Origin: Trissonchulus latispiculum
Taxonomy: Eukaryota; Nematoda; Enoplea; Enoplida; Ironidae
DNA length: 64,000 nt
Direction of reading: 5' to 3'
NCBI GenBank assembly: GCA_030248195.1
Contig: JASAND010007680.1
Location: forward strand, 1-64,000
The notes beneath the pieces are model-generated. The model worked only from the letters and a program-made list of their open reading frames with translations, was not told the origin of the DNA and ran no database searches. Position numbers and translations under genes: made by a program. This document shows, one piece after another, positions 7,352 to 60,300 of this stretch. How positions within the stretch are numbered: position 1 is the stretch's first letter; each line of letters starts with the position of its first letter.

Positions 7352-7510
7352 GGTAAATTAGAATTTTGGACTGGGTTTAGGCTTAACTAAAACGTTTGGA
7401 CGAATTCTATGTTTTATGGTTAGATTTATCTATTGCTACCAGTTATTCATTGTTGGTTCATACCTGCAGGTTGTTTCCTGTTCGGTGCGGTAACAGCCCG
7501 AGATAACTAG
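7352..7510 (-). promoter_or_regulatory. Conserved upstream block of the cysteine-rich gene family
   Basis: The ~150 bases upstream of the ATG align by eye with the regions upstream of the 47516 gene and with the promoter-only remnant at 20670-20830. Shared words in plus orientation include TTATCTATT (GATA-like AGATAA on the gene strand), TTTGGNCGAATT and CGGTGCGGT. A TATA-like CATAAAAC lies about 70 bases before the ATG. Confidence 0.5.
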
Positions 7511-26033: not shown

Positions 26034-26270
26034 ATGCCGCCTCTGGCACAGCAACCTATCTTTAACATATAAAAATCGAACCAATAATGAACCAATATAT
26101 TTTAAAAGCCGCAATCTCGCCATGCCGCTTTTGGCACAGCAACATATCGCTTCTGTTTTAAAAATAAAGCAGACTCAATATACCCATACCGCTTCTAGCA
26201 CAGCAACTCATTGCTCATTTGCAAATTTCAAAAATCATGCCGCTCCTGGCACAGCAGCCTCTCAGGTAAA
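26034..26270 (+). repeat. Left terminal inverted repeat of the Polinton, with iterated 20-mer
   Basis: Contains copies of GCCGCTTCTGGCACAGCAAC at 26036, 26124, 26188 and 26239, each with one to three changes, plus one more just outside at 26011. The 20-mer has TGCC...GGCA dyad symmetry. The segment matches 43777-44013 in inverse orientation at equal length. Confidence 0.88.
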
Positions 26271-26637: not shown

Positions 26638-27216
26638 TGTGAAGATAGTGTGCACATAACATAGAAATTGTGTGCAGGTAGCACACACTCCTAAATTACG
26701 GAATTATTTGGAAAGTATTCAACTTAACAAACGCTCAACGTTTCTGTGACTTTTGTCCGAATTCGCTGGTAGTTTAGCAAAGTTGTCGATTAGGTTCACG
26801 CTTGAACAGTTCAGTTGGGTTTTGGGATAGTTGCGAAGTGGTCGGGGAATTCGCTTGGGTCCGATTCAGTCTCTGGGGTTTCGCTTATTTATCGTCTAGT
26901 TGTGAGTTTTGGATTATTTTGTGAATTCTCTGGCGCTATAAATTTATTGTGGTTTATATTTGAAAAGTAATGCGAAAATATTTGCACTGTTAGTGTGATT
27001 TTGTATTTTGTGGAGTCTTGCTGGCTCAGTTGTAAATGCGACAGTAAAATCATTTGTTGTTAAATATTTTCTTTAAGTAGACTTAGGGCTCTTTCCATTG
27101 GCGTCGCACACCACACAGTTACCTCGTGATCTAGTCTTATCCTAATTTAGAATAGTCAACTCGTTTTATTCAATAATCAGTACATTTTACTAACATACGT
27201 AGTCTCGAACTTCACA
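26638..27216 (+). repeat. 5' LTR (579 bp)
   Basis: Aligns to 29938-30409 apart from about 107 bases (roughly 26709-26816) missing from the right copy and a few substitutions. A TATA-like CTATAAATTTATTG is present near 26936. Confidence 0.88.
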
Positions 27217-27231
27217 TGTGGCGACCGTGTC

Positions 27232-27901
27232 ATGTGGCAGATGCCAGTGGAATTTGCTCCTAAGTTTCAAAATTTTTTTGACGATCGTTTACAAGATATT
27301 CAGCGAATTTTTGAATTTTTGCCTAATTTTGATGCGCCAGCTGAAGTTGAAAATTTAGTTTTTCGTCAACGTTGTTGCGAACAAGCGCCTCTTTTAGAGC
27401 GGGGGGATAGGTTTGAAATGGAAAATTATACAGATCCTCCCTTTCGTGATGGGGCACCTCCCGGTACTCGTGGGGGGGCTCCGGATAGACACTGGGGGAT
27501 CCCGTATATTCCGACTACTATCCCTTTGCAAAATTGGCGGGGTCAGCAACAGCGTAGCGTATGTCAAATGTGCGAAATCCAGTCCCGGTCAGTCAAAGCC
27601 AGTGGCGGCCGGCTACAGACCGGCCTGCCGCTCAGGTGGTGGGGTCGGGACGGGGGCCCCAAAACCGGCTCCAGCAATTTCTCAGATGTTGAATAATACT
27701 TTTGTTAAGCCTGTTACCGGGGGGAACCAGTCGGTGCAGAGTGGGGGCAACCCCCCCAAAATCAGTCTCCCCCACCCCCTCCCCAGGCTCAGAATTCCCA
27801 ACCTCCCCCCTTGCCAGTCCCCACCCCTGGTCAAAATTCATCGGTGGAAATGCTCAGAATGCGGCTACAGATCATGTGTGTATTGTCAAAATGTCATGTG
27901 A
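27232..27901 (+). pseudogene. Gag-like remnant of the nested LTR element
   Basis: A 154-residue frame (27232-27696) opens 15 bases after the LTR with an acidic, aromatic N-terminus (EFAPKFQNFFDDRLQDIQ) and becomes Gly/Pro/Arg-rich. A second frame to 27901 ends with CSECGYRSCVYC, two C-x2-C pairs that could be a degenerate zinc finger. The position suggests Gag, but no capsid signature can be confirmed. Confidence 0.4.
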
Positions 27902-29937
27902 AGAGGCAGGAGGTCCCCCTCCCCCCCAGACTAATACGTCAATTTTACCGTCGGACGAGGAAATTTGGGCGGCGGCGGCGTTGCGTTGCGACCTCCGTAT
28001 GCCGGGTGGGAGGGCCGCACGCTCGGCACCATTCTTTTTCATTTTTAGATTCCGTTTCAAATAGCCTAGAGTTTTTCTGTGAATTAGCACAGGCCTTTGT
28101 GCCGGTGCCTCCATATGCTGGTGCGTATCGTCACTCTGGTCTGGAGCTTTTCCAAATCTTAGGTGGGGCTGTAATTGTGTCGTCTATAATTATGTCGTAC
28201 TTATTTTTGTTTTGCATAATTCTTTTTGCCATTTTATTAATCAGATTCCATTGTGTGCTTTATTTGTTGGCCTTAATTTTTTGTTTTGTGTTCTAGATTT
28301 TGTTGTGGTCTAATCATTGCTACTGTCCGGTGCCGACCCCCTGTCTGGTGGCCAGGTGTGCTCCCCAGGGCCAAGGTGTCTTTGTTGGCTGGTGGAATGG
28401 GTGGAAGCGGCGTGGTTGTTGGGTGGCCTGACTGTTCTGCTTAGGTCTGGTGGTGCGGTGGAAGGTTGGCCGCTGGAAGTGGAAGGTGGACCTGGCTGCT
28501 TGCACGGATTGGCTGGTCTCTTCTGGTGCTATTCCGGTGCTCCGGGTTCTCACGGTTTGAACTTTTCTACTGTGTTGCCATTATTTTGGCCATGACTTTC
28601 TATTTTTATTGTCATTTGTATTTGCTATGCGGGTTGGTCGCGCTTCTTGCCTGCGCGTTTCCCATGCCTAGTTGGGGGCCTTGACTCTTTGGGGCTCTTG
28701 TGAAACTTTGATTGGACCATGCAGGAGGGGTTACAAGGCCTCCTGTTTTTCCAACTGTCCGGTCCTGACGCTGGCAGGGGGCCCTACAGTGGTCATAGGC
28801 CCTCCTGCTATGGTGCGTGCGCTCTCGTTTGAACTGTTTTCCATCGCTGACCTGTCGTTGCTCGGTTCTTCGGTTCCTTGGGCTGTCCCGGCTGGCTTGG
28901 TGCGGATTTTTGTTGGCTGATGCCCAGCCCGGCTTCGGCTTAGCTTCAGCGTTGACTTTTGGCCTTTCCATCCTGCCTGGCAGCCAGGTTCTGGATTGTC
29001 TTTGCGATGGCTCCTGTTACGCTGGATAGTTTTGCGGTGCTGGGGTGAATACCGCGTCTTCCTTTCCTCTGCACACCTGTTGACACTGTCCCCCCCATCC
29101 TGTATTGTGGTTGTGGTGATTTTCGGGTATCTGTCTGTCTTATATTTTGCGCTTAGTTGGGAGGGAGCCTCTGGGATAAAATTTTTTCTTTAAATGGGGT
29201 TGTTTGATTCTTTCATTGTTTTTCATATGGGTGCCCGCTACCTCGGCTTGGCCGTTGTAATGTATATATTTGGTGCCGGGCTAGTAGATTTTTCACTTTC
29301 CTTTTTCTTAACTTGTTTACTCATATGTTTTGATTTACTGACTGTCAATTTCACATATTTCCGTCAAAAGTTTTCATTTTTTCTTTCTATTCTTAAATAC
29401 GCAGCTAGGCAAAGACTCTTTAGTATATTCTGTATCGATTAATTCGGCATTGCTTATATTGTTTTTGGATTCATATACCTCTCTATAGCTCTTTTGTTTG
29501 CTGTTTTGCACACTATACATTGTCGTCACTTATTTACATATATCATTTTCTAATTTACTTATCTTCTATTTTTCGTGGGTTTCTTCAATCGGTGTGTTTT
29601 TGTCTGTTTTCGCGGTCTTCGGACGGTTCTGGTCTCTCGATTATTGTTCTGTTGTTATACTGTATTGTAATAGTTGTTGTCAAAAGTAGTTGTCAAAAGT
29701 CGAAAAGTCGTCTCAATTAAGTTTGAGTAGTTTTACCGTAGTCCGGTCAGCATGTCGAGAATGTGTTTGCTTGACCGAGGTCCGATGCATGTGCATCAAA
29801 AACTTTTTATTTTTAAGTAGAATTTTAACAAACGTTTTATCTTATTAGTACGTAGTATACCTGTGATAATTCCTTTTTAGCCTTTTCTAACCGTCAAAAC
29901 CCGTCCGAGGCCCCCCGGGGGAAAAGAGGGGTTATTA
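27902..29937 (+). other. Interior of the nested LTR element, mostly non-coding
   Basis: T-rich sequence giving many short hydrophobic frames that look like compositional artefacts. No pol motif was found on either strand. Confidence 0.5.
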
Positions 29938-30409
29938 TGTGAAGATAGCGTGCACATAACATAGAAATTGTGTGAAGTTAGCACACACTCCTAAATTATG
30001 GAATTATGGTTTTGGGATAGTTGCGAAGTGGTCGGGGACTTCGCTTGGGTCCGATTTAGTCTCTGGGGTTTCGCTTATTTATCGTCTAGTTGTGAGTTTT
30101 GGATTATTTTGTGAATTCTCTGGCGCTATAAATTTATTGTGGTTTATATTTGAAAAGTAATGCGAAAATATTTGCACTGTTAGTGTGATTTTGTATTTTC
30201 TGGAGTCTTGCTGGCTCAGTTGTGAATGCGACAGTAAAATCATTTGTTGTTAAATATTTTCTTTAAGTAGACTTAGGGCTCTTTCTATTGGCATCGCACA
30301 GTTTACACAGTTTACCTCGTGATCTAGTCTTATCCTAATTTAGAATAGTCAACTCATTTTATTTAATAATCAGTACATTTTACTAACATACGTAGTCTCG
30401 AATTTCACA
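29938..30409 (+). repeat. 3' LTR (472 bp)
   Basis: Starts TGTGAAGATAG directly after the purine tract and ends TTTCACA before the ACAG duplication. It is shorter than the 5' LTR because of a single deletion after GGAATTAT. Confidence 0.88.
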
Positions 30410-30993: not shown

Positions 30994-31607
30994 ATGGTTT
31001 TTAAATGCGCTATTGTACCGCTACTGCAGTGCAAAGTTTATTGATTTGAGAGAAAAGCGAAAACACATTAGACAAGAGCATCCGAAAGAACGCGTTGTAA
31101 AGAAATTTGATTCTCAACCAAACTACTCAATACGTCTAAAGGATACCAATGTTAAATGGGTTACATTCTTTACAAGTGGGTGGCATCCGTTCAGCAACTT
31201 CTATCGAGCAGAATTCACGAATGTGTGGCATTGCTTTCCGAAATGTAGAACAATTTTACCAAGCAGAAAGGGCAAAATCATTTGGAGATTGGAACTGTTA
31301 TTGGCGCATTGTTGGAACTTGGTCACCTTCTGCAGCAAAACAAATTGGACAAAGCATTAGTGGCCACAATGAGGAAGATTGGAAGAAACAGCGTGAAAAA
31401 GTAATGGAAACTGGAGTGAGAGAAAAAGTTAAACAGAATCAGGATATTGAGCAGCTTCTGGTTAACACTGGAAGCGATATCGTAGCAGAAGTGTCTAGAT
31501 TTGATACATTTTGGGCATGTGGACTGGATATCAGCGAACCAAGCATTAACGTTGCAGCGCAATGGACTGGACAGAATAAACTGGGGAAAATATTAATGAA
31601 AATTTAA
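30994..31607 (+). pseudogene. Polinton C2H2 zinc finger plus NADAR (YbiA-like) domain protein
   Basis: The N-terminal part has YRYCSAKF ... KRKHIRQEHP, the end of a C2H2 finger, with its first Cys in another frame. Next come GWHPFSNFYRAEF (the NADAR S-N-F-Y/F start), VEQFYQAERAKSFGD (the W/E-x2-FQ-like helix), FDTFWACGLDIS (the D-x2-W-x2-GLD signature) and GQNKLGKILMKI (the N-x-LGK-x-LM end). Frameshifts lie near 31010 and 31225. NADAR enzymes act on ADP-ribose-linked substrates such as ADP-ribosylated guanine, so a role against host ADP-ribosylation is possible but inferred. Confidence 0.85.
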
Positions 31608-31753
31608 GAGACGAAAAAGTATCGGACTCTATGTGATGTTATGTACTGTTAGTGTAACGTAAATGTTTGCTTTTGGAATAAACAATAAAAAACAGCCAGT
31701 CTCCTTTTAGAGAGACAACAGCGGACTCAGACAAGAATCGTTAGCGATACGAA

Positions 31754-32415
31754 ATGTCTCAATCCACAAATTCACCAAACGTTTTACATACACGATTTTT
31801 GTTATTTCAATGCCCATTTACATGTATTGTAGCTGCACCTACTAAGGCAGGGAAGACAACTTTTGTGATAAAATTAATTAAATCTGCTAACGAAATGATA
31901 AAACCTCCTCCCATGGGAATCATTTGGTGTTACACGGAATTGCAGGGTGCATACGAAGAGATTAGCGATATTGCTGAATTTCAGCTAGGCTTGCCTGATA
32001 TGAACAAACTAAAAGCAAATAAGAATCCCAAATTGTTGATACTTGATAACTTCATGTCGGAAATTGGTAAAGACTAAAAAATCACTAAATTATTCACTCG
32101 CGGTTGTCACCATTGGTCTTTTTGTGCCGTTCATATTACGCAAAATATATTTTACAACAAACGTCGAACCGGTAGAATAAATAGTCAATATATTGTTATT
32201 ATGAAAAATCCTGCAGACAAACTAACACCAATGAATTTAGCTAAACAAATTTTCCCTGTAATTTAAGTGCGTTTTTTTAAGCTTACAATCACGCTACACC
32301 GCAGCCTCATGGTTACTTGTTAATTGATCTAGACCAGAATGCACCTGACGACTTTCGTCTTCGCACTAAAATATTTCCGGACGAATTGAACGGTGTGTAT
32401 AGAATAAAGACATAA
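31754..32415 (+). pseudogene. Polinton FtsK/HerA-like genome packaging ATPase
   Basis: Walker A is APTKAGKTTF (about residues 28-37). Walker B is LLILDNFM, with Asn where relatives usually have a second acidic residue. The 31754-32077 frame stops at 32075-32077, then the same protein continues (KLFTRGCHHW, ITQNIFYNKR, IVIMKNPADK), and after a frameshift near 32270 it ends around 32413. It would drive DNA into capsids. The N in Walker B and the stop argue against activity. Confidence 0.85.
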
Positions 32416-33426: not shown

Positions 33427-34391
33427 AGCCTACTACGATTCAGCAAGCTCTGTAGCGTTTTCAAGTGCTGCAAAATTGCACAGGGCGATAAAAGCTGAGC
33501 ACCCAGCAGCAGCAACAGTATACATATACGGTACATAAACCAATACGACGCAAGTATAAACGAAGACAATATTTTGTGGATGGTATTGATAAATTATGGC
33601 AAATAGATCTTGCAGACTTAACTAGGCTAGCAGATGACAACGATGGGTATACATATTTGTTGACATGCATGGATGTATTTTTAAAATATGCTTGGGCAAT
33701 ACCTGTAAAGTCAAAATGTGCAGGAAACATAGTTAATGCATTTGAATCTATTTTAGTGTCTGGAAGAGTTCCCGAAAAATTGCAGTCAGATCAGAGAAAA
33801 GAATTTCTGAACAAACCCTTTCAAGCTTTATTAAAATCACTAAAAGTGCAGTTTTATACTTGCACCAATTCTGAATTCAAATGTGGCGTCGTTGAGCGTT
33901 TCAATCGGGCAATTAAGTCAAAGCTGTGGAAGATTTTTGCACATACGCGAAGTTACAGGTACATGGATGAATTACCCAAGCTGGTAGAAGACTATAGTCA
34001 CTCAGCGAACAGAAGCATTAAAATGACACCAACTGAAGCGTCACTAGAGGAAAACGAATCCGTTGTATTTAATAATCTATACGGTAAAACTGTTGCTACC
34101 CATGGACGAGCAAAGATGAAAGTGGGTGACGTTGTTCGCAATAGTAAAGCTAAAGGTTTATCTGAAAACGGATATCTACCAAACTGGTCAGAAGAATTAT
34201 TTAAAATTAGAAAGGTAACTGCAAATGCATTTCCACCAATGTATCATCTTGAGGATTTGCAACAAGAACAACTGCAAGGCAGATTTTACAAAGAGGAATT
34301 GCAGGAAGTTACTGAACCTGACTCCTATTGGATTGAAAAAGTAATCAAAGCCAGAATATTTGGAAAACGGAATATTTGGTTAAATGGTTAG
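33406..34391 (+). pseudogene. Polinton retroviral-type integrase (DD35E)
   Basis: The N-terminal region is in one frame from the ATG at 33406 (NRAYYDSASSVAF) and stops near 33540. The catalytic core is in the next frame, 33576-34391 (271 residues), with D11 in LWQIDLADL, D72 in LQSDQRKEF and E107 in GVVERFNRAIK, a D-D-x34-E triad. The second motif has QRKEF instead of the usual KGxEF. The C-terminal part (VGDVVRNSKAKG ... YKEELQEV) is the SH3/chromo-like DNA-binding region. It would insert the element into host DNA. Confidence 0.92.
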
Positions 34392-34430: not shown

Positions 34431-36465
34431 ATGGATTTGTTCCTTCAGTTGCCTTGCAATACAAAAGATTATGTTGACAATACTTTAAATAAATTCCGCG
34501 TGAAGCTTCCACATCGCATGGATTTAGATGGAGAATGGGAGGTGGCCTTAGTGGAAATCTTACATCCTGTCGTAGAGTTGTGACGCGGGCCGGTGGCGGG
34601 CCGCGGGCTCGGGCCGGGCCGCGGGCCGGGCCGGCCCGGCCCGGGCCCGGCCCGGATTTTTCGGCGACGGCCCGGCCCGCGGCCCGGCCCGCAAGATTAC
34701 AAATAGGCGGCCCGCGGGCCGGTGGCGGGCCGCGGGCCGGGCCGGTTTTTTACACGGTAAATGGCAATTTTTCAATAAATTTCGATGCAATTTCAAGTTT
34801 CATTTACAGATTTTCAATGGCTTTGTTTTTTTACACATAATGGAAATAAGAATTGACCTGTGCCGGCCGGTATCTGGGGGTTAAGGATGTTATATAGTGA
34901 CTACTTATTGGATATACCTAATCCTTTTTAAGTTACGTCTATGAGAAGGGTGTGGAAACTTTTTATATGTGAACAGCTGTCGCAAAACAATTGGAATGAA
35001 AACATTCACAAATATAATTAGGTTTGGTGGTATTGGTCTTGATGTAAGGGGTTATCGTTCGCAGTTTAAGATGCAGTGCTCTTGCTTGCGATTGTAATTG
35101 CTAATTTGAAACGTAACCAACATCCAAAACCTTGTTAGACAAACTAAATGAAATCTGGTTTAATTCATCCCCTGCTATTGGTCATGTAAATTAGACCTTT
35201 ATGTCAAAATCAAGCAATGGACAAACTTAACACAAGAGACATTTAGTTTGAGGAAGTGAAAAGCTTCAGAAAAAGTAGGACAGCATCTGTAAAAAATAAT
35301 TGAATCGAAATTGTAACATAAGGTAGAGTGGAGTAGGAGCACCGAGAGACAGCTTGGATTTGTATTTAGATAATGGGTGGAATTCTGCATAACAATTTAA
35401 TATTTACCAAACACGTAATCGGCTGACCAGTGACCACTTGCTATTGCTTATTTGTTGTTTGTGAAAAATGGAAGACATAAAATAGAGGTAAAATAAGTTG
35501 GAGTTAGACTTAAAACAAGTTGAAATCAATTTACCTAACAGTTCGGGCCGTTTTTTGCGACGTCGGGCCGTTCGGCCCGTAGAAATTTGCGGCCCCGGGC
35601 CGGCCCACATGGCCCGGCCCGCCACCGGCCCGCGGGCCGGTGGCGGGCCGCGGGCTGCGGGTCGGGCTCGGGCCGGGCGGGCCCGGCCCGCGGCCCAGCC
35701 CGTAGGACCACATCGGCCCGCGGGCCGGCCCGGCCCGCAAAATTTTCTTATTTTCCAACTAGTCACATGGCACAATTTTGGAGATGATGAGGATGCAACA
35801 ATTGAAATATCCTTCTCTGATAGGAGCACTTAAAGGTGAAAACATTACCAGCGATTCACTACGAAACCGTGCATGGATTGTGGGAATCACTAAATCACAT
35901 AGTTGGGGAAATAAAAAACTTAAAAGGAAAAACGGCAGAATTAAGAATGACCTACAACAGTCAAAGACAACGTACTGTTTTCAAAGTTTACGAAAATCCC
36001 GAAAATTTTGAACATCCAAACTTTAACAGCTTAAGGCTCAGTAAAAAGCTTGCGTATGTCTTAGGGTTTACAGAGCAGACGTTAGCGTCTCAGCCTTCTG
36101 TTGATCGCAGTGATATTAGCAATTGGGATAAGATATCACAAGAAGTTGCTGTTACTAATCGTAAAATCATTGTTGACAGCGATTCAGACATACGTGCCAG
36201 ATTTTACTCAATGTTCGTATACTGTGATTTGGTTGCTCCGCAAATTATCGGCAATACTATTGCTCCGCGGCTGCGAGTTGTTAACACCGCAGGGCAGTAC
36301 GGACAAGTAGTCAACAGAGAATACCACAACCCCCATTATGTTCCAGTACTAAAGAAGGAGTTTGATAATGTTGAAATTAATATAAATGACGACACTAGTA
36401 CACGAGTTAAGTTTGCATACGGAAAAACTCTTGTGAAGTTGCATTTTCGAAAACCTCGACCATGA
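34431..36465 (+). pseudogene. Polinton minor capsid (penton-like) protein, split by an insertion
   Basis: The first 49 codons (34431-34579: MDLFLQLPCNTKDYVDN ... LDGEWEVALVEI) match the N-terminus of the Polinton minor capsid family (LxLP, N-T, L-x-GEWEVxLxEI). A 1.18-kb GC-rich insert follows. The rest resumes near 35761 and, after a frameshift at about 35835, runs 35836-36465 with LAYVLGFTEQ, FVYCDLVAPQIIGN and LKKEFDNVEININD. It would form capsid vertices. The gene is broken by the insert and the frameshift. Confidence 0.8.
34580..35760. mobile_element. GC-rich inverted-repeat insertion inside the minor capsid gene
   Basis: Both ends are dense arrays of GGGCCGGGCC/CCGGCCCGCG words (about 34585-34745 and 35545-35745), largely inverse of each other, around an ordinary AT-rich 800-bp interior without genes. 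The left end TAGAGTTGTGACGCGGGCC resembles hAT miniature elements. A clean 8-bp duplication could not be defined, so edges are good to about 10 bases. Confidence 0.7.
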
Positions 36466-36496
36466 GATCGTATTCCTATCCAGAATCTGTCAAGAC

Positions 36497-36870
36497 ATGG
36501 GAAACTGCGTGGAGGATCGCTACCAGCATATGCAGGTATGCCTTATCAACGAGGGGATGGTATTGGTAGTTTGTTTAAAAGTATGTTTCGTGCAATATGG
36601 CCGACAGTAACGAAGGTCGGTTTTCAAGTTGGTAAAGAAGCACTTAGAACGGGTAGTGAAGTAGCTAGAGATTATCTTAATCACGGCGAAGACATTAAAA
36701 CATCATTCCGCAAACGAGGTCGACAAGCAGTTGGACGGACGCTAAGTACCGTAGGTGAGAAACTGCAGCAGGAAGGTGAAGGGTTGGGTTGCAGACCCAT
36801 TAGAAAGAGCATAAAAAAAAGTAGAAAAACGCAGAAAAGTAATCAAACGCGACATATTCTGAAATGGCTA
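36497..36870 (+). pseudogene. Polinton PX-like basic minor protein
   Basis: The recognisable part starts about 36538: MPYQRGDGIGSLFKSMFRAI, then FQVGKEALRTGSEVARDYL, then a Lys/Arg-rich tail (RKSIKKSRKTQKSNQ). The YQRG-x-G-I/L-GS motif, amphipathic helix and basic tail characterise the small Polinton/adintovirus protein compared with adenovirus pX/pVI. The start is uncertain because the preceding Gly-rich leader is in another frame. It probably binds DNA or membranes in the virion. Confidence 0.75.
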
Positions 36871-36879
36871 AACAAGTTA

Positions 36880-38210
36880 ATGCACAATCGTAATCCCGGG
36901 TTTAAAAGCGAATTGGATTTACTTTCCTTCCTCCAACTCAAGTATCCATCGAAACAGGACATTGGGCAGGGTACTATCCGCAAAATCCAACTACAAATGC
37001 TGGTCCTTATAGATTTGTTATTCCAAGAGATGTATACATGCTGGATTTAAACAAAAATTATTTATACCTCAAGATAAAAATTACAGAAAACGATGGTACT
37101 TACATTGGTCATCCAACTACTCCCAAAGGCACTAATCCAGATACAAGCAAAATTAACGTTGCACCTATCAATATGAGTGCCGCAACGTTGTTTGAACGCA
37201 TCATTGTAAAAATTACGGATAAAGAAGTTGAGAATACTGGTCCCCTCTATGCTTTTAAAGCATACTTGGAGACATTACTAAACTTAGAAAAGGAAGCAAA
37301 AAAGACTCATCTGCAAATGGCTCTATATCATGCTGACAATGCACAAAAACTTGAAGATCCAACCGGAAAGGCAAACCTTGAGCGTGGAAAACCATTTGCT
37401 AAAAATCATGGAGTCGAACTGTTATCACCGCTGCACTAGGATCTATTTAAACAAGACAGGTACATGTTGAGTGATACTGAAATTGATATGGAACTTCATC
37501 GCAATTCAGATAAATTCGTGTTGTTGTCGGACGGAACTGATTACAAAGTACAGATTGACGATATGCGATGGTACGTTTGGAAAGTTAAACCACAAGAGTC
37601 GTTGAGTTTAGCAATTCAAAATGTGCTGCGCACAACCGCAGCAAAATACCCTATTCGGAGAACAAAGATGGTCACGCGACATATAGCTCCCAAAGTCAAA
37701 CAACAATCGAAAATTCAATTTTCTCTGGACAACTTCCACGTAGATTAGTAATGGTTATATTTTAAATCAGAAGCGTTCAATGGTAGCTACACAAAGAACC
37801 CGTTCAAATTTGAGCACTGCAAACTATGTGAGATTTCCTTAAAGTTGCGAGACGAGTACGTTTCTAAACATCCAATGAAAATTGATTGGAAAGAGTACAG
37901 GTACACATTTCCTTTCATAGCATTTTATGACGGGTGCAACATTGCAAATTCAAATAGACGGTTGGACATAAATTATGCAAATTATAGTGAAGGGTACATA
38001 GTCTTCGTGTTTGATCTGACACCAGATAGTGTAGTTGGTGGTGCAATGGAGCTTATCCGAGAAGGTGATCTATCCCTGCATATGTTACTGAAAGAACCTC
38101 TAAGCTCAGCAACATACCCTCAAGCAGTGGAAATTATTATTTATGGTGAATTTGACAATTTATTATCAATAGACCAAAACAGGACTCCCTTTTTTGATTA
38201 CTCAATATAA
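36880..38210 (+). pseudogene. Polinton major capsid protein (F54H12.2-like, double jelly-roll family)
   Basis: The N-terminal SELDLLSF and a following stretch lie in two frames around 36900-37040. Then 37038-37439 has YLYLKIKITENDG and LFERIIVKI, 37464-37748 has LLSDGTDYKVQIDDMRWYVWKV, and 37845-38210 has YTFPFIAFYDG and GYIVFVFDLTPD, ending FFDYSI. This order is that of the Polinton capsid protein commonly annotated in animal genomes as F54H12.2-like. In-frame stops (near 37437 and 37746) and frameshifts separate the blocks. Confidence 0.88.
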
Positions 38211-39238: not shown

Positions 39239-39699
39239 GTGTTGAAAATAGGGTATCTAAATAGAGAAATGACTCACTATACACAAAACATATTAGTTTT
39301 CATTTTACACATTCCTGCTCCAGCAGGAATAAAGACGCTGAGGCTTTACTCCATAGTTGATGCTCAGTTTCTTGGTGTGTTTGCAAGCGATCGTTTACCC
39401 AACATTACAACCATTCCGTCATGCTTATTTGCTACCTTAATACAGACCCTTCTGACCAACCTGGACAGCACTGGATTGCTATATACTTTGATTGTCAAAC
39501 CGAATATTTTGATAGCTACGGATTAGAACCGTTAGCACTATTTTCAAGAAAATATGCAATTGATAGAGTAAATCGTTTCCGTTTACAAGATTTGGATACT
39601 GCAGTTTGTGGTGAATATTGTATCTATATTTTAGTGCAACGATGTCACGGTGTATCCATGGATACTGTTATTAGCTATTTAAGAAACGACCATCCATAA
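39239..39699 (+). pseudogene. Polinton adenain-like cysteine protease
   Basis: The start region ends FLGVFASDRLPNI in one frame. After a frameshift near 39420 the core continues to 39699: NTDPSDQPGQHWIAIYFD contains the catalytic His, EYFDSYG the supporting acidic position, and AVCGEYCIYILVQR the nucleophile Cys. These are the landmarks of the adenovirus protease (C5/Ulp1) family used by Polintons for virion maturation. Catalytic residues are kept, but the frame is broken once. Confidence 0.88.
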
Positions 39700-39778
39700 A
39701 CGATTCAATTGTGAAACAGTTTGTTGACAAGTTTAAACAGTGTTGTGAATCCACAGAGTTTTGTCAAACTTCAAAAGC

Positions 39779-40270
39779 ATGCAAATTGTAAATATTGTTA
39801 TTTGCGGTAAATTGAGTTCAACGATATGTCTTAAGAATTTGAAAACTATAATCCCAAACGGGTTAGTGGAGCAATTGTAAACAGGTTACACTGTACTATT
39901 CTCTTTTCTCAACGGGAAGCTTAGTATGTGCTGGTTCGAAAACCTATCAGGATGCGTACCTGTCAGTCAAGACATATGCAGCGGAACTAGGTCTTACTGT
40001 TCTGTTTTGTGAAATAAAAACGCAGTCTTGTCCGAAGCTTTATGCAGACGCATTCATCTGGAAAGGGTGTATTCCTTTCTTAAAGACCATGGCTATCATG
40101 TATGCTATGAACCAGAACTATTTTCAGGGCTGACTTGGCAGCATTGTAATGCAACTGTGAGATTGCTTTATAATGGTAAATTATTTGTAACTGGAATGTC
40201 TAATGTTAATCACTTGAAAATGGTATGTAATGTAATTTGTAATGTTTGTTTGTTTTGTAATAAAACATAA
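39779..40270 (+). pseudogene. TATA-binding-protein-like gene in the Polinton
   Basis: Two TBP-type repeats can be traced in shifted frames. Repeat 1: IVNIVICGKLSSTICLKNL (39785-39850), NGKL, then VCAGSKTYQDAYLSVKTYAA (39929 on), comparable with the IQNIV ... SGKxVCTGAK ... ARKYA landmarks. Repeat 2 (40028-40270): YEPELFSGL, the most diagnostic TBP motif, followed by LLYNGKLFVTGMSN. Frameshifts lie near 39880, 39920 and 40048. It is intronless, follows the protease by ~80 bases and is divergent from conserved animal TBP, so a host processed copy is less likely than an element gene. Confidence 0.75.
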
Positions 40271-40504
40271 CAAAGGCAGCGGTGACAGGAAGCCTTCACG
40301 AGGCGCTGCTGAGAATGTCCTAACGTGGCTACCAAATTTTATCCAGTCTTTAATAAGGGTATGCAGATACAATCACGCGGTCATTGTAATCATAAACTTA
40401 TTCAATGCTGTTTACGAGTTCAACAGTATAACCTCTAAATCCCGTGTTTTCGCCAAAACATGCTTGCTTATTTTGAACCTGGGAAACTCCATTTGGAATC
40501 GCTT

Positions 40505-42601: not shown

Positions 42602-43219
42602 TTTCGTACTCTTCTTGAGCACTTCTTTTCTTGGTTTAAGGCTACCCATACTATATCTGGTCTTGAGCCAGAGGCACTCGCTGACCAGCCCTCTACTTCT
42701 ACAGGCATAGACTGTTGCACCCTGAAAATTACAGCTATCGAGGATATTTCATATATGGACTGCCACCACATTTACCACTTTGACTGCAGTCGGAGATGGA
42801 GTTCTGAAGTCAACATTTGCCCCTACTGCAAGACCGTACAACGACGTTATTATAACTTTGAAGGCCTAGCACATGCCGTTACGGTACTTATACCCTTTGT
42901 ACGTTTTACGCTGCTCATGTTTATCACTGTAGCTTTTCAGAATGACAACAATTCTAGTAGATTCGCGAACATTTCTATTTTAGGGTCGCTCATCAACTTT
43001 ACCTCCGAAGAACTACTCGCCTGTGGAAGCAGATTTCCTGGAGCTTGTCACGGACATGGGCGCTCGAGTGCTTGCACAGCACGAAGACTTTTCTGTCGTC
43101 TATCCAGGGAAACTCACAACGTCAATGAAATTGTATCTGTGGATATGGTTTTGAAGGCGAATCCTCATATTTGGCGACACACTGGTCGACGCTCGACAAA
43201 CTGGAACTCATGGAATTAA
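42602..43219 (+). CDS. RING-H2-like zinc finger protein, possible Polinton accessory gene
   Basis: The open frame is about 205 codons, with a first ATG at 42755. CHHIYHFDC followed by W and CPYCKT gives C-x-H-x2-H-x2-C ... C-x2-C, the second half of a RING-H2. A GLEPEAL segment resembles the helix that precedes RING domains. The first zinc pair is reduced to DCC instead of C-x2-C, so one site may be damaged. A hydrophobic helix (VTVLIPFVRFTLLMFITVAF) follows. E3 ubiquitin ligase activity would be the usual role. Membership of the Polinton rests on position only. Confidence 0.5.
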   Translation, partial: FRTLLEHFFSWFKATHTISGLEPEALADQPSTSTGIDCCTLKITAIEDISYMDCHHIYHFDCSRRWSSEVNICPYCKTVQRRYYNFEGLAHAVTVLIPFVRFTLLMFITVAFQNDNNSSRFANISILGSLINFTSEELLACGSRFPGACHGHGRSSACTARRLFCRLSRETHNVNEIVSVDMVLKANPHIWRHTGRRSTNWNSWN

Positions 43220-43776: not shown

Positions 43777-44013
43777 TTTACCTGAGAGGCTGCTGTGCCA
43801 GGAGCGGCATGATTTTTGAAATTTGCAAATGAGCAATAATTTGCTGTGGTAGAAGCGGTATGGGTATATTGACTCTGCTTTATTTTTAACACAGAAGCGA
43901 TATGTTGCTGTGCCAAAAGCGGCATGGCGTGATTGCGTCTTTTAAAATAAATTGGTTCATTTTTGGTTCGATTTTCATGTGTTAAAGATAGGTTGCTGTG
44001 CCAGAAGCGGCAT
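43777..44013 (-). repeat. Right terminal inverted repeat of the Polinton, with iterated 20-mer
   Basis: Inverse of 26034-26270. The 20-mer recurs inverted at 43789-43808, 43840-43859, 43904-43923 and 43992-44011, in the same order and spacing as the left repeat, with independent substitutions in each. Confidence 0.88.
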
Positions 44014-45057: not shown

Positions 45058-46074
45058 TTGCTGAGTCGCTTTGCTGAACCAAGCCGCGGAACTTATACTC
45101 ATTATTTCAATAGCTCTGGCACTACATACGACAACCTGGACAACAACAAACTTCCAGAACTCACTGCAACAATGTTTAACAATTCTACAGCACACAGTTC
45201 GGAAGTTCCGGAAAGCTATGGCTTGGTGCTTTTGTGCTCCACAGTGTTGTGCATTGTGCTAAACGTTTCTGTCGTTCATATCCTCTGTCAGATAGCAAAG
45301 GCTGATAAAGTCCCCATTTACCGGTTGCTTGCCAGTCAAATTATCACAGATATTGTTTTCCTTTGCTGGTGTTTCCACAGAGCAATTTGTGTGATTCTTC
45401 GACGACAAATATCGCTGCTAGTTGACTGTGCATTTGCTGCCGTAGCGGATTTTGGATACAGTAGTCAAATGTGGCACCTTCTTCTGATTGCTATGTTTCG
45501 TTTTCTGACAATTGGTAACGGAACACTAGCCAATAATGTGATAGATAACAAATTCTTTGGCATGAAAGCCTGCAAAATATACATTGTAGTAGCCAATACC
45601 GTAATTTTCGCCAGTAATTTGTTGATGTCCTTCTGTTCGAGGTCTTTCTACTACTACGAGGCTATCTCTGGCGTAATGGTTTTTGTGGATGAGGTCAAAT
45701 TCGACATATTCAAATATGTTGACCTTTACTACATCTACCTTAGTCCTGTTACTGTTGGCCTATCACTTTTGTTTTATTCTGGAACTTTTGCGATTCTTTT
45801 GCGAGAGCGAAGAAAATTAACTTCTTCATATAACTTTGGAGCAGAGGTTAGACTGGTAGTGGTGGGTCTTGTTAATCTGATATTTCAAAAACTTAGTCTA
45901 TACGCCTGGATATATGGTAAATTCTATCATTCAATTATAGCCTGTTTAAATTGTTCAATAGGAAGCTTATCCTGTTTGCTTCTGATTTCAGCAATCAAAC
46001 GATACTGCCAGAGAGCCGTAAAACAGTACATTTCAGGCAGTCGTAGCACTACAGTGAAAACGTTACACTCCTAA
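45058..46074 (+). CDS. Divergent 7TM receptor, intronless
   Basis: 338 residues from the first ATG. The ATG at codon 40 (MFNNSTAHSSEVPES) gives a more usual short extracellular N-terminus with an N-glycosylation site (NNST), so the start is uncertain. Seven hydrophobic segments are visible: YGLVLLCSTVLCIVLNVSVV, LLASQIITDIVFLCWCF, MWHLLLIAMFRFLTI (with FRF where DRY would be), IYIVVANTVIFASNLLM, YIYLSPVTVGLSLLFYSGTF, VRLVVVGLVNLIFQKLSLYA and CLNCSIGSLSCLLLISAI. A basic tail follows. No NPxxY. Likely a lineage-specific chemoreceptor-type protein. Confidence 0.68.
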   Translation: MLSRFAEPSRGTYTHYFNSSGTTYDNLDNNKLPELTATMFNNSTAHSSEVPESYGLVLLCSTVLCIVLNVSVVHILCQIAKADKVPIYRLLASQIITDIVFLCWCFHRAICVILRRQISLLVDCAFAAVADFGYSSQMWHLLLIAMFRFLTIGNGTLANNVIDNKFFGMKACKIYIVVANTVIFASNLLMSFCSRSFYYYEAISGVMVFVDEVKFDIFKYVDLYYIYLSPVTVGLSLLFYSGTFAILLRERRKLTSSYNFGAEVRLVVVGLVNLIFQKLSLYAWIYGKFYHSIIACLNCSIGSLSCLLLISAIKRYCQRAVKQYISGSRSTTVKTLHS

Positions 46075-46638: not shown

Positions 46639-47516
46639 TTAGCAATTATGATTTTCCTGAATAAATGTCAGCACTTGAACCGCTTCTTCACCGCATGCGG
46701 TCCCGACTGGTTCCATCTGACATTGGACGGTCTTTTTGTTTCGCTTGCAATAGTCGTCTTCTGGGGGACCATCTCCGTTTATGCAGGACCGTACTTCTTC
46801 TCTGAAAGTGAGAAATAAATGCCTGTTGGTTTCAGGACTGCTTTTGAACTGTTTCGAAACTATGACCGTGAATGGATGCACTTTGTTTAAGAAAATACAT
46901 CTTAAGCATGCAGTCGTAAATTAATAATTCCAGAATCAATTATTACATTTAATGATTGTAGTGATGACGAAGATGGTGCTAAAAGATTAGATTGTTAAAA
47001 TACAATTATTTTTAGTGTATTTCCAACAACCGACATGCTCCGTTCGTTAACTCGGGGGCGGGGATTATTCGCTGATTAGTTCAAGGCTTACGGTAGAAGC
47101 ATGCATACGTTCAGTACATGATAGTGTAAGAGTTTCCTACTCTTATCCTATTATGTACTCTTGCTTAAACTAAAGCTAAATTTAAGGTGACATGTAACAA
47201 CTAACTGATGGCTGGTGGAAGCTGTATCCATGCACTGTAACTGTCCTTTAGCTTTCTCCAACATCACTGCGTCATCGCACAGTTTGGACAGAAACGAGTA
47301 CGGTATGCAGTTGAGTAGATCAGGTTTGCGCGTTTTCGCCTCCTCAATTGCTTCGCAAATACCCTGCAACTGATCGGCGGTTTTAAAAACCGGTTCCATC
47401 GACAACGAACATTCGCTTGCGGCTTCCGAACCGAGACGATTACACTGCTCTACGTCTAGGCTTCCCAAGCTATACGACAGAATCATGAAAAATAAAATCA
47501 CCGAACCTGGAGACAT
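46639..47516 (-). CDS. Secreted cysteine-rich protein, family copy 3 (two exons, one Cys lost)
   Basis: Exon 1 is 47516-47206 (donor GTTAGT) and exon 2 is 46801-46639 (acceptor TTTCAG), phase 2, 474 coding bases, 157 residues. The signal peptide is about MSPGSVILFFMILSYSLGS. Mature cysteines are 11: the position that is Cys in the AKTCKPD/VETCKSD segment of copies 1 and 2 is Arg here (AKTRKPD), so one disulfide partner is unpaired or re-paired. Exon 2 ends in a terminal Cys like the others. A TATA-like CTATAAAAAGC lies about 60 bases before the ATG. Function unknown. Confidence 0.8.
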
Positions 47517-47660
47517 GGCAAATGTGCTAAATTTGTGAACTGGGTTTGATTGAACTGTTTGGGCGAATTTGCAGCTTTTTATAGTAAGGTTTTATCTATT
47601 CTGCCAGACCTTATTCCCCGGTTGACTGCAGCCGGTCGTATCCTGATCGGTGCTGTGTAA
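47517..47660 (-). promoter_or_regulatory. Conserved upstream block with TATA box, family copy 3
   Basis: CTATAAAAAGCTGC on the gene strand (about 47573-47586), GATAGATAAAAC upstream of it and CGATCAGGATACG-type sequence further out align with the same words before copy 1 and at 20670-20830. Confidence 0.5.
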
Positions 47661-54337: not shown

Positions 54338-57300
54338 TTAAGCAGTCTTTGTGGCCAATTCTTCGACGACGTCACAAATTCTGTTCACAGCATCGATCAG
54401 AACAGACTCGTCGTAGAAAGCAAACGAAATTCGCACATAATTTCCAAATCGTTTCTTCGCATCAGGAGCGCAGGAAAAGCTGAAATAAGGCACAAAACGT
54501 TTCAGCAAATCAAATGTAAAGTCAGTTTAGTATACTCCACAAATAATAGGCTCGCATTATTGGAAAAAACAGTACTGCACCCCTGTTTGGGGGGGGGGGA
54601 CCGAAGACAGACTTAACACGCCAGGGTTCCCACCACCTATTCAAATAGACGACTATTCGCAGTCATAGTCGACGCGAAGTACTGCTAAGCAGTGCACAAC
54701 AAAAACCTAGGACCATTTCAAGAAAGTGTAGAGTAGAGTTAAAATGAACTCGATCTTTTTCATGAAAGAGTTAAGAGGGAAAATCAAGCTTGAGAGGAGT
54801 TAAACGAGTTAAAACAGTAATTTTAACTCTACTCTACTCTACCCTTTCCTGAAAAGGACCCTAGTGGCTTACTCTTCTTAGTTTGTCTTTGAAGCTACGT
54901 ACGATCACGATGGCTGAACTAAATTGAGTTTTAAACCAAATCTAACTCGCTATTCTCATGATTATTTTTCTGATGAACAGAAAAATTAATACTATACCAG
55001 ATTTATACTGCAAAATTGATATTTTTCTACATACACATGGCCTGAGAAAAAGGAAAGATTGTAGCGATCTTTTGTAATCGCATTAACGTCCTCCGCGAAA
55101 ACATTGTCAGGCAGTCGAAACCAAACAAAATACCCACCCTAAAAATAATAAAAATAAAATTAATAATTACAGCATAAATACCCACACAAAGCAATAGTTC
55201 AATGCCACATGATGTCAATAACACTAATGGCTGTAATAAAGCTATTCCAAATCTACGTATAATATAATATTACTAACTACAATTTAGAATTTCTGAAAGT
55301 TTTGCGCAATTCTCTAGCTTAAATCCATCAAAAGTAGCATTTGATTACCCTCGGCGTGGTCACACGAAAGCCTTTATAGTTCGCCAATCGCTGAAGGGCA
55401 GACAATATTTTCCGCAATCGACACTAAAAAATCAATAAGCAACAGATGTTGTTAAGAAAATTGTCAAACTGTTCATGTCCAAACCAATAAAGTTCTGCTC
55501 AGCAAATCGATATGTAAAATACCCACCAACTACAACATACTACGATATTATTGCACTGTGTCACAGAGATGGACGCGGGACGAAACTTTTCGTCCCGTCC
55601 CGTCCTGTCCCGCCCTCAATTTGTTTGTCCCGTCCCGCGGGATACCGCAGTCCCGCAAATTTAATAATGCCCGTCCCGCAAAATCCCACATAATTTCTTA
55701 ATTGTCTCATTAGCTAAAATTAATGGTATTAATTAAATTAGTATTAAATACTAATTTAATATGAAAATTTAAAATAAGTTTTTTATGTAAACTTTACGCT
55801 ATATAATTATTTTTTCCTTGCTAAGATGCACAGTCAGTACTTAATTTATTATTCAAATACGCTGCTGTGTGTAAAAATGTGAAATGCTTATATCATCTGC
55901 AAACAAACAATATCAATTGTTGATTTCAAAATATTGGCTAAATTGACCAAATAAAATCAAATTTAGCGGAATCAGAAAATTACTGCCATACAAAAGCGAT
56001 GGAACCGGGTCACCGTGTCAATTTGGGCTACTTTTCGGATCGGGTCACTGGGTCACCGGGTCAAGAGCTTGGATCCGGCCTTGATCCGGGAAATTTCAAT
56101 GTGATGCTGATACATGATTTGCATTTTTAAAATTTAACTTGCGCTTCATAATTTTCGCAGCTTGAGGTTCTTTCAATATGGTCTCCAGCAAAATAGTGTT
56201 TGTTCTCATCGGTGTCATGAATATTGCATTGCATAGATCTGTTAGAACTAGCTGGTTGCAAATTATAACTGATTAAATTAGGCAGTGCAGATAAAGCCAA
56301 GTTTCAAAAGTCTCTAGCTTTGTCCCGTCTTTAAGTTAAAAATCAAAACTTTGACTGGTTATACATAATCAACACTTTATACAACTTCGAAGTCATTTAC
56401 ATTACCTGCGTATACTCAAAATGAAACAATAAACTTTCAATCAGAAAGATAAACCAGCACAGCAAACTAAACCTTATTACCTCAAAATTAAATTTTATAA
56501 AATACTTTGAAGTGTGACTGTAATGTTTTGAAAACTGTTATCTAGCTTTCTTAAAAATTCCTTAATTTTGAAGTAAATATAAGAAATTTTTGTCCCGCGG
56601 GAGCCCTGTCTGTCGTCCCATCCCGTCCCGTCCCGCGGGATCCCGCGGGCTCCCGCGGCCCGCGTCCATCTCTGCTGTGTCACAAGACATCTGGTAATCA
56701 GTACGACGATATATATATGTCGTAGTTCAGTATGTAATTCAGTTCAGTTCGGAACTGAACTAGTCCAGTATGTAATTACACACTGAACTAGTTCGGTATG
56801 TAATCAACATTTTCAAAGCTATTACAGTTCTTGTTTATGAAACCCCTCGTTGTGATGTTGCAAATGTTACAGGGTCTGTAGTGTACAGGGTCAGTATTCT
56901 GCGAAATTAAGATGAATGAAATTTGTTCCATTTTCCACCTTCTTGTTTCTTCTTTTAATTTTCTAATCTTTTCAATTTTCTTAATTTTGCATCTAACTTT
57001 TTCTTCGAGCTGTTTATAAAGTGTCAGCTACGAACATGTTCGTTGGAATCTCCTGATTCCAAAAATATAAACAATTAATTTTTGAATACATGACCGTAAA
57101 ATGCGTTTGTATATTTTTGAAATTTGTTGCAAATAATTAAGAATACAGATTCTACAACTTAATTTTCAAAAAAACGCAGACATATATGAATAATTCTGAG
57201 CAATTTAATACCAATTTAACTGCTTTAAGATATTTTAGCTTTACTAAATGTTGACTAAACACTTCTTTAAAATTTGACTTTACTGGACAAAGTTTACTGT

Positions 57301-60300
57301 AACTTATAGTTCTTTGCAAAATAATGAAGTACATGGGGCCCTATCTTAAAGTGCGTCATTTCTAAGTTCCTAGATTTCCATTAGAAAACCAAATTTTGAA
57401 ACGCTATATCAAAAGTTAAAGTTTTACACTAGGTACTCACTCTCACACAATATAATAGGCAAATATAAACATTCGGCATTAGTGATGTGGATCGGATCGG
57501 ATCGGCAGTAAAAAATTTAACCGATCCGATCCAGTAAAATTATTTGTCGATCCGATCTGATCCGGCGATCCGGGTTAGCTTCTTTAAAAAAGCTAGATGA
57601 AACTTTTTTAAAGTCGGATTTACAGTGTCAAACACATCTTGCACACTAATTTGACTGAGCTAGCTTTATTTTATTATTCCTATTAACAAATGCCTAAGGC
57701 ATTAAGAAAGATTGCTGAAGTGATATTTCAGAAAACAGAGAGCTAGACAATGAACGTTACGTACTGGGTAAATATTACGTACCAATGAAAATACGAAAGC
57801 ACTTTATCAGTTAAAAGCTATATATAAGGCTAAGAGTTAAGTTATTCGAAACTAAAACTGTAACTTTTTTGGATTATTGGATGTTCCTGGGTGGAACTCA
57901 ATTAGAATTTAATTTTGTTGAAGAGTTAGAGATTGAAACTGCATCCTGAATGGCATCTTAAAACTACATACAGCATAAATTTCAACAATCTGTTTCATAT
58001 TTTGGGTTTGGAGGTATTTTAAACATTTTTGCTACTCTTTGAAAACTCAATTACTTGTAAACTTGAACTTGAACTTGCTTTTACAGTTCTCAAGTCTGAC
58101 ATACTTGCTCAGCTAATTGCCGTAAGTAGAAGGAAAAGCTTCATGAAACACTGACAACTTGAGCTTGCGATTCATGTGCAAGTACTTTCAGTGCAAAGTA
58201 TTCAAGTGCAAACTTGCAAGATTTTATGAAATTGGTCCGGATCTTGCTTTTTCACGTATAGATGCCAACACATATAATGTGCTGTACGCACGTATTAATC
58301 AAGTTAGTAACTTGAAGTTACTATTCACTAAGTGCCAATCTATCCAGCTTATATTCTCCCTGAGAAACTAAAAACTTGGAGCACCAAAATTGTAGAAGGA
58401 AAATAGGAAAAGGAAACGTTTGCGCACCAATTGAAGTCATGTTTGGTGATAATGCTGAGCATGGTGAGGTTGCAATTTATATGATGATTGAAATTTAGCC
58501 GGATCGCCGATCCGACTGGCTCAAGCGATCCGATCCAAGCCGATCCGACGGGCCTACCGATCCGATCCGATCCGATCCGGCCCCCGGATCGCGGATCGGA
58601 TCGATTTTACCGATCCGATCCACATCACTATTCGGCATAACATACAATCAATTTGCATAGAAATCCACAAAATCTGTGATCATCGAAAAATTTGTGAAAA
58701 TGAGGTTACAATGTTACTTCAAGTTAATTTGAGTTGCAATTGAAGCTTTAACATTTTATAAAATATAATTTTGTGATTTGAAGCACGAAACAACAGATTT
58801 AGTAAAAATAAAATGTCTTAAAACAAATTGGTATTAAATTGCTCAGAATTATTCATATATGTCTGACTGAGTACTTGTTTTTTGAAAATTAAGTTGTAGA
58901 ATCAGTATTCTTATTTATTTGCAACAAATTTCCATTCAAAAAATACAAACGGACTTTACGGTCATGTATTCAAAAATTAATTGTTTATATTTTTGGAATC
59001 AGGAGATTCCAACGAACATGTTCGTAGCTGACACTTTATAAACAGCTCGAAGAAAAAGTTAGATGCAAAATTAAGAAAATTGAAAAGATTAGAAAATTAA
59101 AAGAAGAAACAAGAAGGTGGAAAATGGAACAAATTTCATGCATCTTAATTTCGCAGAATACTGACCCTGTGCACTACAGACCCTGTAACATTTGCAACAT
59201 CACAACGAGGGGTTTCATAAACAAGAACTGTAATAGCTTTGAAAATGTTAATTACATACCGAACTAGTTCAGTGTGTAATTACATACTGGACTAGTTCAG
59301 TTCCGAACTGAATTGAATTACATACTGAACTACGACATATATATATATATATATAAGATAAAAATACGTAATTTTATTATAGTCGTATATACTAGCCTAC
59401 CCCATACATAGTTCTGAGCTCTGACACAAACTGCGACACAGCCCCAGACCGGATGGCCTTTGCAACGATTCCTGAGGTATAGTTGTTCAGACAGCCTCCG
59501 CTGTGAAGCATCCCGCTAAAACAGAAACAAAAAATGCATGGTTGAATTTGAACTGAACGCAACACATCACAGATAGTACAATACCAACTTACGTTTCATC
59601 ATTTCTACACGACAGTAATCCTAGCCCCCAAAAAGGGAATAAAAGCTTTCTGCAACCTGATTGGTTGTTCCCTATACATCTATCTATATACGTTAGACGC
59701 CCACCCTTCTGAGCTTATTCTACTGGGAGGGGGCGGGAGGGTCCCCCTAAGAAAAAAATCCCTAGAATAAGGCCAGCCTCTCCGCTCACCAAAAGCGCTC
59801 CAGTGGGGTGCCGGGAGTCCGGATTCCCCCTCCTACCTCCCCTTCTGGGGGTTATGAAAATTTTAGCTACTTCTAAAGAAAGTAGGACCATTTAGTGATG
59901 TGGAACGGATCGGATCGGCAAGTAAAATTCTAACCGATCCGATACAGCAAAATTGTCGATTCGATCCGATTAGATCCAGGTCCTGAATCGGTAGGTCCGA
60001 TCCGATCCGGCGATCCGAAATGACTCCTTGAAAATAGCAAGTGAAACTGGATTTAAATTCGGTTCTTGCATTGTCAAACTCGTCTTACACAGTAGTTACA
60101 ATGAGATTTCTTCTATTCCGAAACACAAACGCATAATTGCATAAAAATTGAGACTAAGCAAAAGAAGTAAAATTATTTTGAAGAGTGAGCCTGCCGATGA
60201 CGCTAAGTTTAGTACAGAATTAAAATACCAAAATACAAATTTAACATTACGAGCTTAAGAATATATGGCCCATGTCAAGATAAAAGTCACTTTTTGATGT

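What the first reader, a model, noticed from the sequence alone, without database searches (positions are those of the whole stretch)
39779..40270. A TATA-binding-protein-like gene inside a Polinton
YEPELFSGL and the paired NGKL...VCAGSK / NGKLFVTGM strands are TBP-repeat landmarks. The gene lies on the same strand just after the protease, within the element's inverted repeats, without introns, and is far from the highly conserved animal TBP. Large DNA viruses are known to carry TBP; I do not recall it for Polintons. It would let an element redirect host transcription to its own late promoters, which is an inference.
Basis: partly seen in the sequence, partly recalled or inferred. Interest (0 to 1): 0.9.

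Follow-up and report, generated by a model that had tools for sequence, protein, structure and literature searches.

The report
Broken TATA-binding-protein gene inside a Polinton
A virus-like jumping element (a Polinton) in what looks like an animal genome carries the broken remains of its own copy of the cell's transcription-start protein TBP, and a related freshwater element carries an intact one, suggesting that some Polintons bring part of their own transcription machinery.

Summary
The TBP similarity is real: piece 40013-40267 matches Pfam TBP at E 8.5e-8, and a frameshift-tolerant scan of the whole window finds its best tiles here. But it is not an intact gene: it lies in pieces in all three forward frames, the longest 88 aa. 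It follows a broken adenovirus-type protease on the same strand, inside a decayed 18-kb Polinton (inverted repeats). At 26-29% identity to yeast TBP it is too diverged to be a host TBP copy that decayed in place, since the inverted repeats differ by only 5%. The strongest evidence is outside the window: contig L016, a Polinton binned with a freshwater bacterium, has PolB, ATPase, integrase, capsid and protease genes and an intact 183-aa TBP (E 5.7e-37) beside the protease; its model is a TBP saddle. L017, same bin, has a partial TBP nearby. A short, weakly resolved tree groups the window piece with these (88%); AU tests do not exclude cellular TBP. The papers searched hold no report of TBP in Polintons. 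Function (starting transcription on the element's promoters) is inferred. The host genome could not be searched.

The parts
26034..26270 (+). left terminal inverted repeat (237 nt)
   Evidence: 95% complementary to 43777-44013, 12 mismatches
43777..44013 (-). right terminal inverted repeat
   Evidence: no target-site duplication recognised
31149..31607 (+). NADAR-domain ORF, 152 aa
   Evidence: PF08719 E 1.6e-32
31745..32077 (+). packaging ATPase, first piece (continues in other frames)
   Evidence: tblastn from L016 ATPase E 6.5e-27 over 31796-32400; Pfam matches only weak and below cut-off
33492..34391 (+). Polinton integrase, cut off before the chromodomain
   Evidence: rve E 8.9e-11; 243 homologues, best E 3.9e-113
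35824..36465 (+). minor capsid protein, C-terminal part
   Evidence: tblastn from L016 minor capsid ORF E 3.1e-19; no Pfam match
36466..37050 (+). small ORF after minor capsid (pVI-like position; name recalled)
   Evidence: tblastn from L013 E 2.1e-8; no Pfam match
36906..38210 (+). major capsid protein, one frame interrupted by in-frame stops
   Evidence: tblastn from L013 MCP E 1.9e-41 over 36927-38201; three ORFs in one frame
39361..39699 (+). adenovirus-type protease, N-terminal third missing from this frame
   Evidence: tblastn E 1.4e-18, residues 56-147 of the L013 protease; Peptidase_C5 18.0 bits, below cut-off
39749..39880 (+). possible N-terminal TBP piece
   Evidence: by eye only; not significant
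39835..39924 (+). TBP first-repeat piece with YNPKR
   Evidence: 1 of 500 shuffles reaches its score to yeast TBP; no Pfam match
39867..40133 (+). TBP piece, end of first repeat
   Evidence: PF00352 E 0.0018; PDB TBPs best E 4.9e-5; 0 of 500 shuffles
40013..40270 (+). TBP piece, second repeat with YEPELFSGL
   Evidence: PF00352 E 8.5e-8; PDB TBPs best E 1.1e-4; 0 of 500 shuffles; model pLDDT 86.3 matching TBPs

Best explanation
The stretch is the decayed remains of a TATA-binding-protein gene that belonged to the Polinton's own gene set: a single-exon, two-repeat TBP beside the protease gene, diverged from cellular TBP long before this copy inserted, and broken afterwards together with its neighbours. 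At least one related element still has the gene intact. Likely role, inferred: in a working element the TBP binds and bends the element's promoters and recruits TFIIB and host RNA polymerase II, so that transcription of the element's genes depends less on host TBP. Shown: TBP homology, location, decay, and an intact TBP in a related Polinton. Inferred: that the window's gene once worked, DNA binding, partners and benefit.
For: Pfam and PDB sequence matches to TBP; score far above shuffles and unique in the window; both repeats collinear, no introns; position inside the inverted repeats after the protease. L016: intact 183-aa TBP, E 5.7e-37, beside the protease in an element with PolB, ATPase, integrase with chromodomain, capsid and protease genes; L017: partial TBP near the protease. 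L016 model: saddle, pLDDT 93.7, PDB matches TBP. The window piece groups with L016, L017 and P0122 at 88%, and with these plus the P0123 group at 93%. Inverted repeats differ by 5% while the protein pieces are 26-29% identical to yeast TBP, so most divergence predates insertion.
Against: The window's gene is broken. The tree has 86 columns and a very long window branch; cellular placements are not rejected (AU p 0.08-0.11). The window's DNA scores lower with L016 TBP (82) than with yeast TBP (125), so the link to L016 rests on the tree alone; in the full-length tree L016 and P0122 do not join the P0123 group with support. The TBP in L016 and L017 is on the opposite strand to the protease, and both contigs come from one bin. 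L013 and L015 have protease and sequence beyond it but no TBP. No TATA enrichment in L016. Other copies in the host could not be searched.
Confidence: 0.78

Rival explanations
1. A processed pseudogene of host TBP, or of a divergent host TBP-related factor (TRF/TLF), that landed inside the Polinton and decayed there.
For: No introns; broken; cellular and TLF placements are not rejected on the tree (AU p 0.08-0.11); host TBP and TRF were not available for comparison.
Against: Only 26-29% identity to yeast TBP, no better with a recalled nematode TBP (126 against 125 for yeast) and lower with a recalled vertebrate TLF (109), while the inverted repeats differ by only 5%; TBP also sits beside the protease in other Polintons.
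Confidence: 0.12
2. The TBP gene is intact in the living genome and the frame changes are assembly or sequencing errors.
For: Several breaks are shifts between overlapping frames; nearby long ORFs such as NADAR 31149-31607 and 45172-46074 are open.
Against: In-frame stops in the capsid gene, a cut-off integrase and protease, an inserted LTR-like element and no PolB found all point to real decay.
Confidence: 0.07
3. The TBP came from a giant-virus or mirusvirus gene captured separately by this element, unrelated to the TBP of L016.
For: TBP occurs in giant viruses and mirusviruses (PMC11464507, PMC12085832, PMC10132985, passages); the best-scoring relatives of the window, the P0123 group, have unknown context.
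Against: 10 of 12 IMG/VR TBP loci score 48-77 against 125 for yeast TBP; grouping the window with the IMG/VR rows is rejected (AU p 0.006), though those rows are not one clade, so the test is not clean.
Confidence: 0.15

Closest known systems
Polinton/Maverick elements (and adintoviruses) of animals
   Same: Inverted repeats; ATPase, integrase, minor and major capsid, protease genes in the same order as in L013, L015 and L016
   Different: Carries TBP and NADAR genes; no PolB found in this copy
Cellular TATA-binding protein (TBP core, PF00352)
   Same: Two-repeat core with YNPKR / YEPEL landmarks; L016 model matches PDB TBPs at TM about 0.8
   Different: 26-29% identity to yeast TBP; sits in a mobile element; broken in the window
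TBPs of giant viruses and mirusviruses
   Same: A virus-encoded TBP; in CpV-BQ1 proposed to redirect host RNA polymerase (PMC12085832, passage); 59% of mirusvirus genomes (PMC10132985, passages)
   Different: Those viruses are far larger; the IMG/VR TBPs score lower with the window than cellular TBPs do
TBPs of haloarchaeal viruses HJTV-2 and HRTV-9
   Same: Virus-borne TBP gene
   Different: Archaeal tailed viruses (recalled); 29-31% identity to P0123; no relation to Polintons

Membership tests
TBP family (PF00352) | Score above the curated Pfam cut-off | tested here: met
   One of five window pieces: 32.4 bits against 22.9; the middle piece 18.5 is below. L016 TBP 125.9 bits
TBP family (PF00352) | Two tandem repeats forming a saddle | tested here: met
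   L016: two matched stretches and a saddle model. Window: collinear pieces of both repeats, only the second repeat modelled
TBP family (PF00352) | Open reading frame | tested here: not met
   Window: pieces in three frames. L016: open, 183 aa
TBP family (PF00352) | Four DNA-bending phenylalanines (positions recalled) | tested here: inconclusive
   By eye: L016 has F at all four; the window reads V, F, F, Y across pieces
TBP family (PF00352) | Binds and bends TATA DNA | not testable with these tools
   -
Polinton/Maverick | Terminal inverted repeats | tested here: met
   237 nt, 95%
Polinton/Maverick | Integrase, ATPase, protease and capsid genes | tested here: met
Polinton/Maverick | Protein-primed PolB | tested here: not met
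   No match at E 0.05 from two L016 PolB pieces or long upstream ORFs of L015 and L018; lost or never present in this copy
Polinton/Maverick | Target-site duplication (recalled: 6 bp) | tested here: inconclusive
   None recognised by eye at the ends; a LINE-like element abuts the left end
Processed host TBP pseudogene | Near identity to the host's TBP | tested here: inconclusive
   Host TBP not available; far from every cellular TBP tried

The most novel reading that the evidence does not exclude
A lineage of Polintons, spanning a decayed element in an animal-like genome and an intact freshwater one, carries its own TBP as a regular gene beside the protease, so that these small viruses supply a general transcription factor to host RNA polymerase II; the P0123 group of metagenomic TBPs may be further members.
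Probability: 0.45. Interest if true: 0.8.

Novelty: new variant of a known kind. Interest (0 to 1): 0.66.

Why it matters
How Polintons and adintoviruses control their transcription is, to my knowledge, little studied. A self-encoded TBP would be a general transcription factor in a virus of under 20 kb, would tie Polintons to giant viruses and mirusviruses in which TBP recurs, and is directly testable with the intact L016 protein. It would also be a marker for sorting Polinton lineages.

Tried and rejected
Led nowhere. Phage collection with the window by DNA and by protein: no match; with P0123: 3 records, haloarchaeal-virus TBPs. Protein database with the second-repeat piece: nothing. IMG/VR with the TBP piece, capsid piece, integrase, integrase alignment, L016 TBP and capsid alignment: no relative. 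IMG/VR with cellular TBPs gave 12 loci and with the P0123 group 2; window Polinton proteins find nothing in the 12 at E 0.1, and in the 2 only a stray protease match at E 0.08 besides TBP. L009 and L011 read like haloarchaeal viruses by eye. TATA-motif scan of L016: 15 matches on both strands, 2 outside annotated ORFs (14% of the contig), one of these 46 nt upstream of the dUTPase; no enrichment. Paper searches gave nothing on the point.

Rejected: chance similarity; introns as the reason for the frame changes (spacing leaves no room); an IMG/VR giant-virus TBP as nearest relative.

Limits: the second-repeat tree has 35 rows and 86 columns. Before it 4 rows were dropped (P0136, P0138, L009, L011); P0121 was left out as 99% identical to L016, and L007 and L008, with the same match lengths and scores as L006 and L002, were never used. 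The models were made from alignments of TBPs, which lean towards that fold. L018 has one tile scoring 64 with P0123, inside its long upstream ORF, not followed. 'Nematode' rests on one Srsx match.

Full report
1. The observation. The stretch 39779-40270 encodes TBP-like sequence on the + strand, but in pieces: stop-to-stop reading gives 39835-39924, 39867-40133 and 40013-40270 in three different frames. Pfam TBP hits the last at E 8.5e-8, above the curated cut-off, and the middle one at E 0.0018, below it; three further pieces of the stretch have no match. PDB sequence matches of both are TBPs. A frameshift-tolerant alignment of 39741-40280 to yeast TBP scores 125 against a mean of 28.4 and a maximum of 46 in 200 shuffles. 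Over overlapping tiles of both strands of the window, the best tile with TBP P0123 is at 39781 (164), and no tile away from this stretch exceeds 56. The similarity is real and the gene in this copy is broken. The second-repeat piece alone models with pLDDT 86.3 and matches PDB TBPs (best E 6.5e-4, TM 0.79), from an alignment of TBPs.

2. Surroundings. The stretch lies in a decayed 18-kb Polinton. Inverted repeats 26034-26270 and 43777-44013 have 12 mismatches in 237. Between them, on the + strand, lie a NADAR ORF, ATPase, integrase, minor capsid, a small ORF, major capsid and protease genes, found by Pfam or by tblastn from other Polintons. The capsid gene has in-frame stops, the integrase stops before its chromodomain, and the protease lacks its N-terminal third in frame. 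A 402-nt direct repeat at 96.5% suggests a later LTR-like insertion in the left part. Two L016 PolB pieces and two long ORFs from L015 and L018 find no PolB. LINE-like ORFs, by eye, abut the left end.

3. Relatives. An alignment of Polinton integrases (A1) against bacterial and archaeal genome bins returned 9 loci. I read these as eukaryotic contamination; at least two bins are animal symbionts. TBP was found in 2 of the 9, L016 and L017, both from one Limnohabitans bin. Of four loci with a significant protease hit (L013, L015, L016, L017), two have TBP. L016 (13.4 kb, 30% GC) carries PolB, a Pox_A32-like ATPase, integrase with chromodomain, Peptidase_C5, TBP (E 5.7e-37) and dUTPase by Pfam, and capsid genes by tblastn. 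The TBP is 183 aa and lies directly beside the protease on the opposite strand. L017 has the second TBP repeat, cut by the contig end, one gene further on. The L016 TBP models as a saddle (pLDDT 93.7, pTM 0.84, 20 rows); the 44 PDB matches at E 0.001 or better are TBP entries or transcription complexes of the kind that contain TBP. Among the 50 viral models listed, those named TBP or TFIID belong to large DNA viruses.

4. Origin of the window's TBP. A protein search with the L016 TBP gave 19 relatives, among them a group of 10 on mostly short contigs, 66-78% identical to P0123 (A4). The window's DNA scores 164 with P0123, 130 with a fungal TBP (P0124), 125 with yeast, 126 with recalled nematode TBP, 109 with recalled TLF, 82 with L016, 75-78 with archaeal TBPs and 48-77 with 10 of the 12 IMG/VR loci. 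Window and P0123 group share a two-residue shortening between the GL and GK motifs of the second repeat that L016 lacks. In a tree of the second repeat the window piece groups with L016, L017 and P0122 at 88%, and with these plus the P0123 group at 93%. Against this: 86 columns, a very long branch, and AU tests that do not reject cellular placements (p 0.08-0.11) and cannot tell the L016 group (0.52) from the P0123 group (0.61). In the full-length tree, without the window, L016 and P0122 do not join the P0123 group with support. What weighs more is timing: 5% divergence of the inverted repeats cannot account for 26-29% identity to yeast TBP, so the gene had evolved on its own before this copy inserted. 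That is inference.

5. Mechanism. A working copy would act as TBP does: bend promoter DNA and recruit TFIIB and RNA polymerase II. For a giant virus such use of viral TBP and TFIIB is proposed in PMC12085832 (passage). For Polintons it is inferred here. L016 keeps F at the four positions of the DNA-bending phenylalanines (positions recalled); the window reads V, F, F, Y. No TATA enrichment was seen in L016.

6. Novelty. Full-text searches: polinton + TATA-binding protein, 3 papers; adintovirus + TATA, 2; polinton + TBP, 2; Maverick + TATA-binding protein, 2. None is listed as reporting a Polinton TBP. [quoted passage not shown] Term searches within PMC11071308, PMC10675990, PMC4028283, PMC11464507, PMC12220804, PMC10120064, PMC10328495, PMC12721341, PMC7805220, PMC10132985, PMC7786948 and PMC12085832 showed passages only, or no occurrence. 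Starrett et al. 2021 on adintoviruses is not held. The library holds open-licence papers only, so a report elsewhere is possible.

7. Verdict. The better exhibit is L016. I file this as a new variant of a known kind: a Polinton with a TBP gene. The odds for the best explanation and the novel case were set a little lower in this version, after restating that the window's DNA scores lower with L016 than with cellular TBP and that the context of the P0123 group is unknown.

Noticed in passing
31149-31607 (+): NADAR-domain ORF (PF08719, E 1.6e-32), open over 152 aa, inside the Polinton; a paper search for Maverick with NADAR found nothing relevant.
   Followed up: partly
42755-43219 (+): RING-type zinc-finger ORF near the right inverted repeat (zf-RING_2 25.4 bits, just below the 27.3 cut-off).
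   Followed up: no
26638-30409: Direct repeats 26818-27217 / 30008-30409 (96.5%) and 26638-26707 / 29938-30007 (94%), suggesting an LTR-like element inserted in the Polinton.
   Followed up: partly
34584-35733: Two very G+C-rich repetitive blocks, partly palindromic, between the integrase and the minor capsid gene.
   Followed up: no
56709-57217 / 58825-59346: Long inverted repeat outside the Polinton: 409 nt at 98%, with further arms of 55 and 41 nt, about 1.6 kb between.
   Followed up: no
6974-7357, 18907-19317, 47151-47591 (all -): Three similar small secreted-looking cysteine-containing ORFs spread over the window, without significant Pfam match.
   Followed up: no
L013-L021: Polinton contigs, evidently eukaryotic, sit in bacterial genome bins of GTDB species representatives: contamination worth flagging.
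   Followed up: partly
L016 12006-12428 (-): dUTPase gene (E 4.6e-38) in the L016 Polinton, with a TATAAATA motif 46 nt upstream.
   Followed up: no
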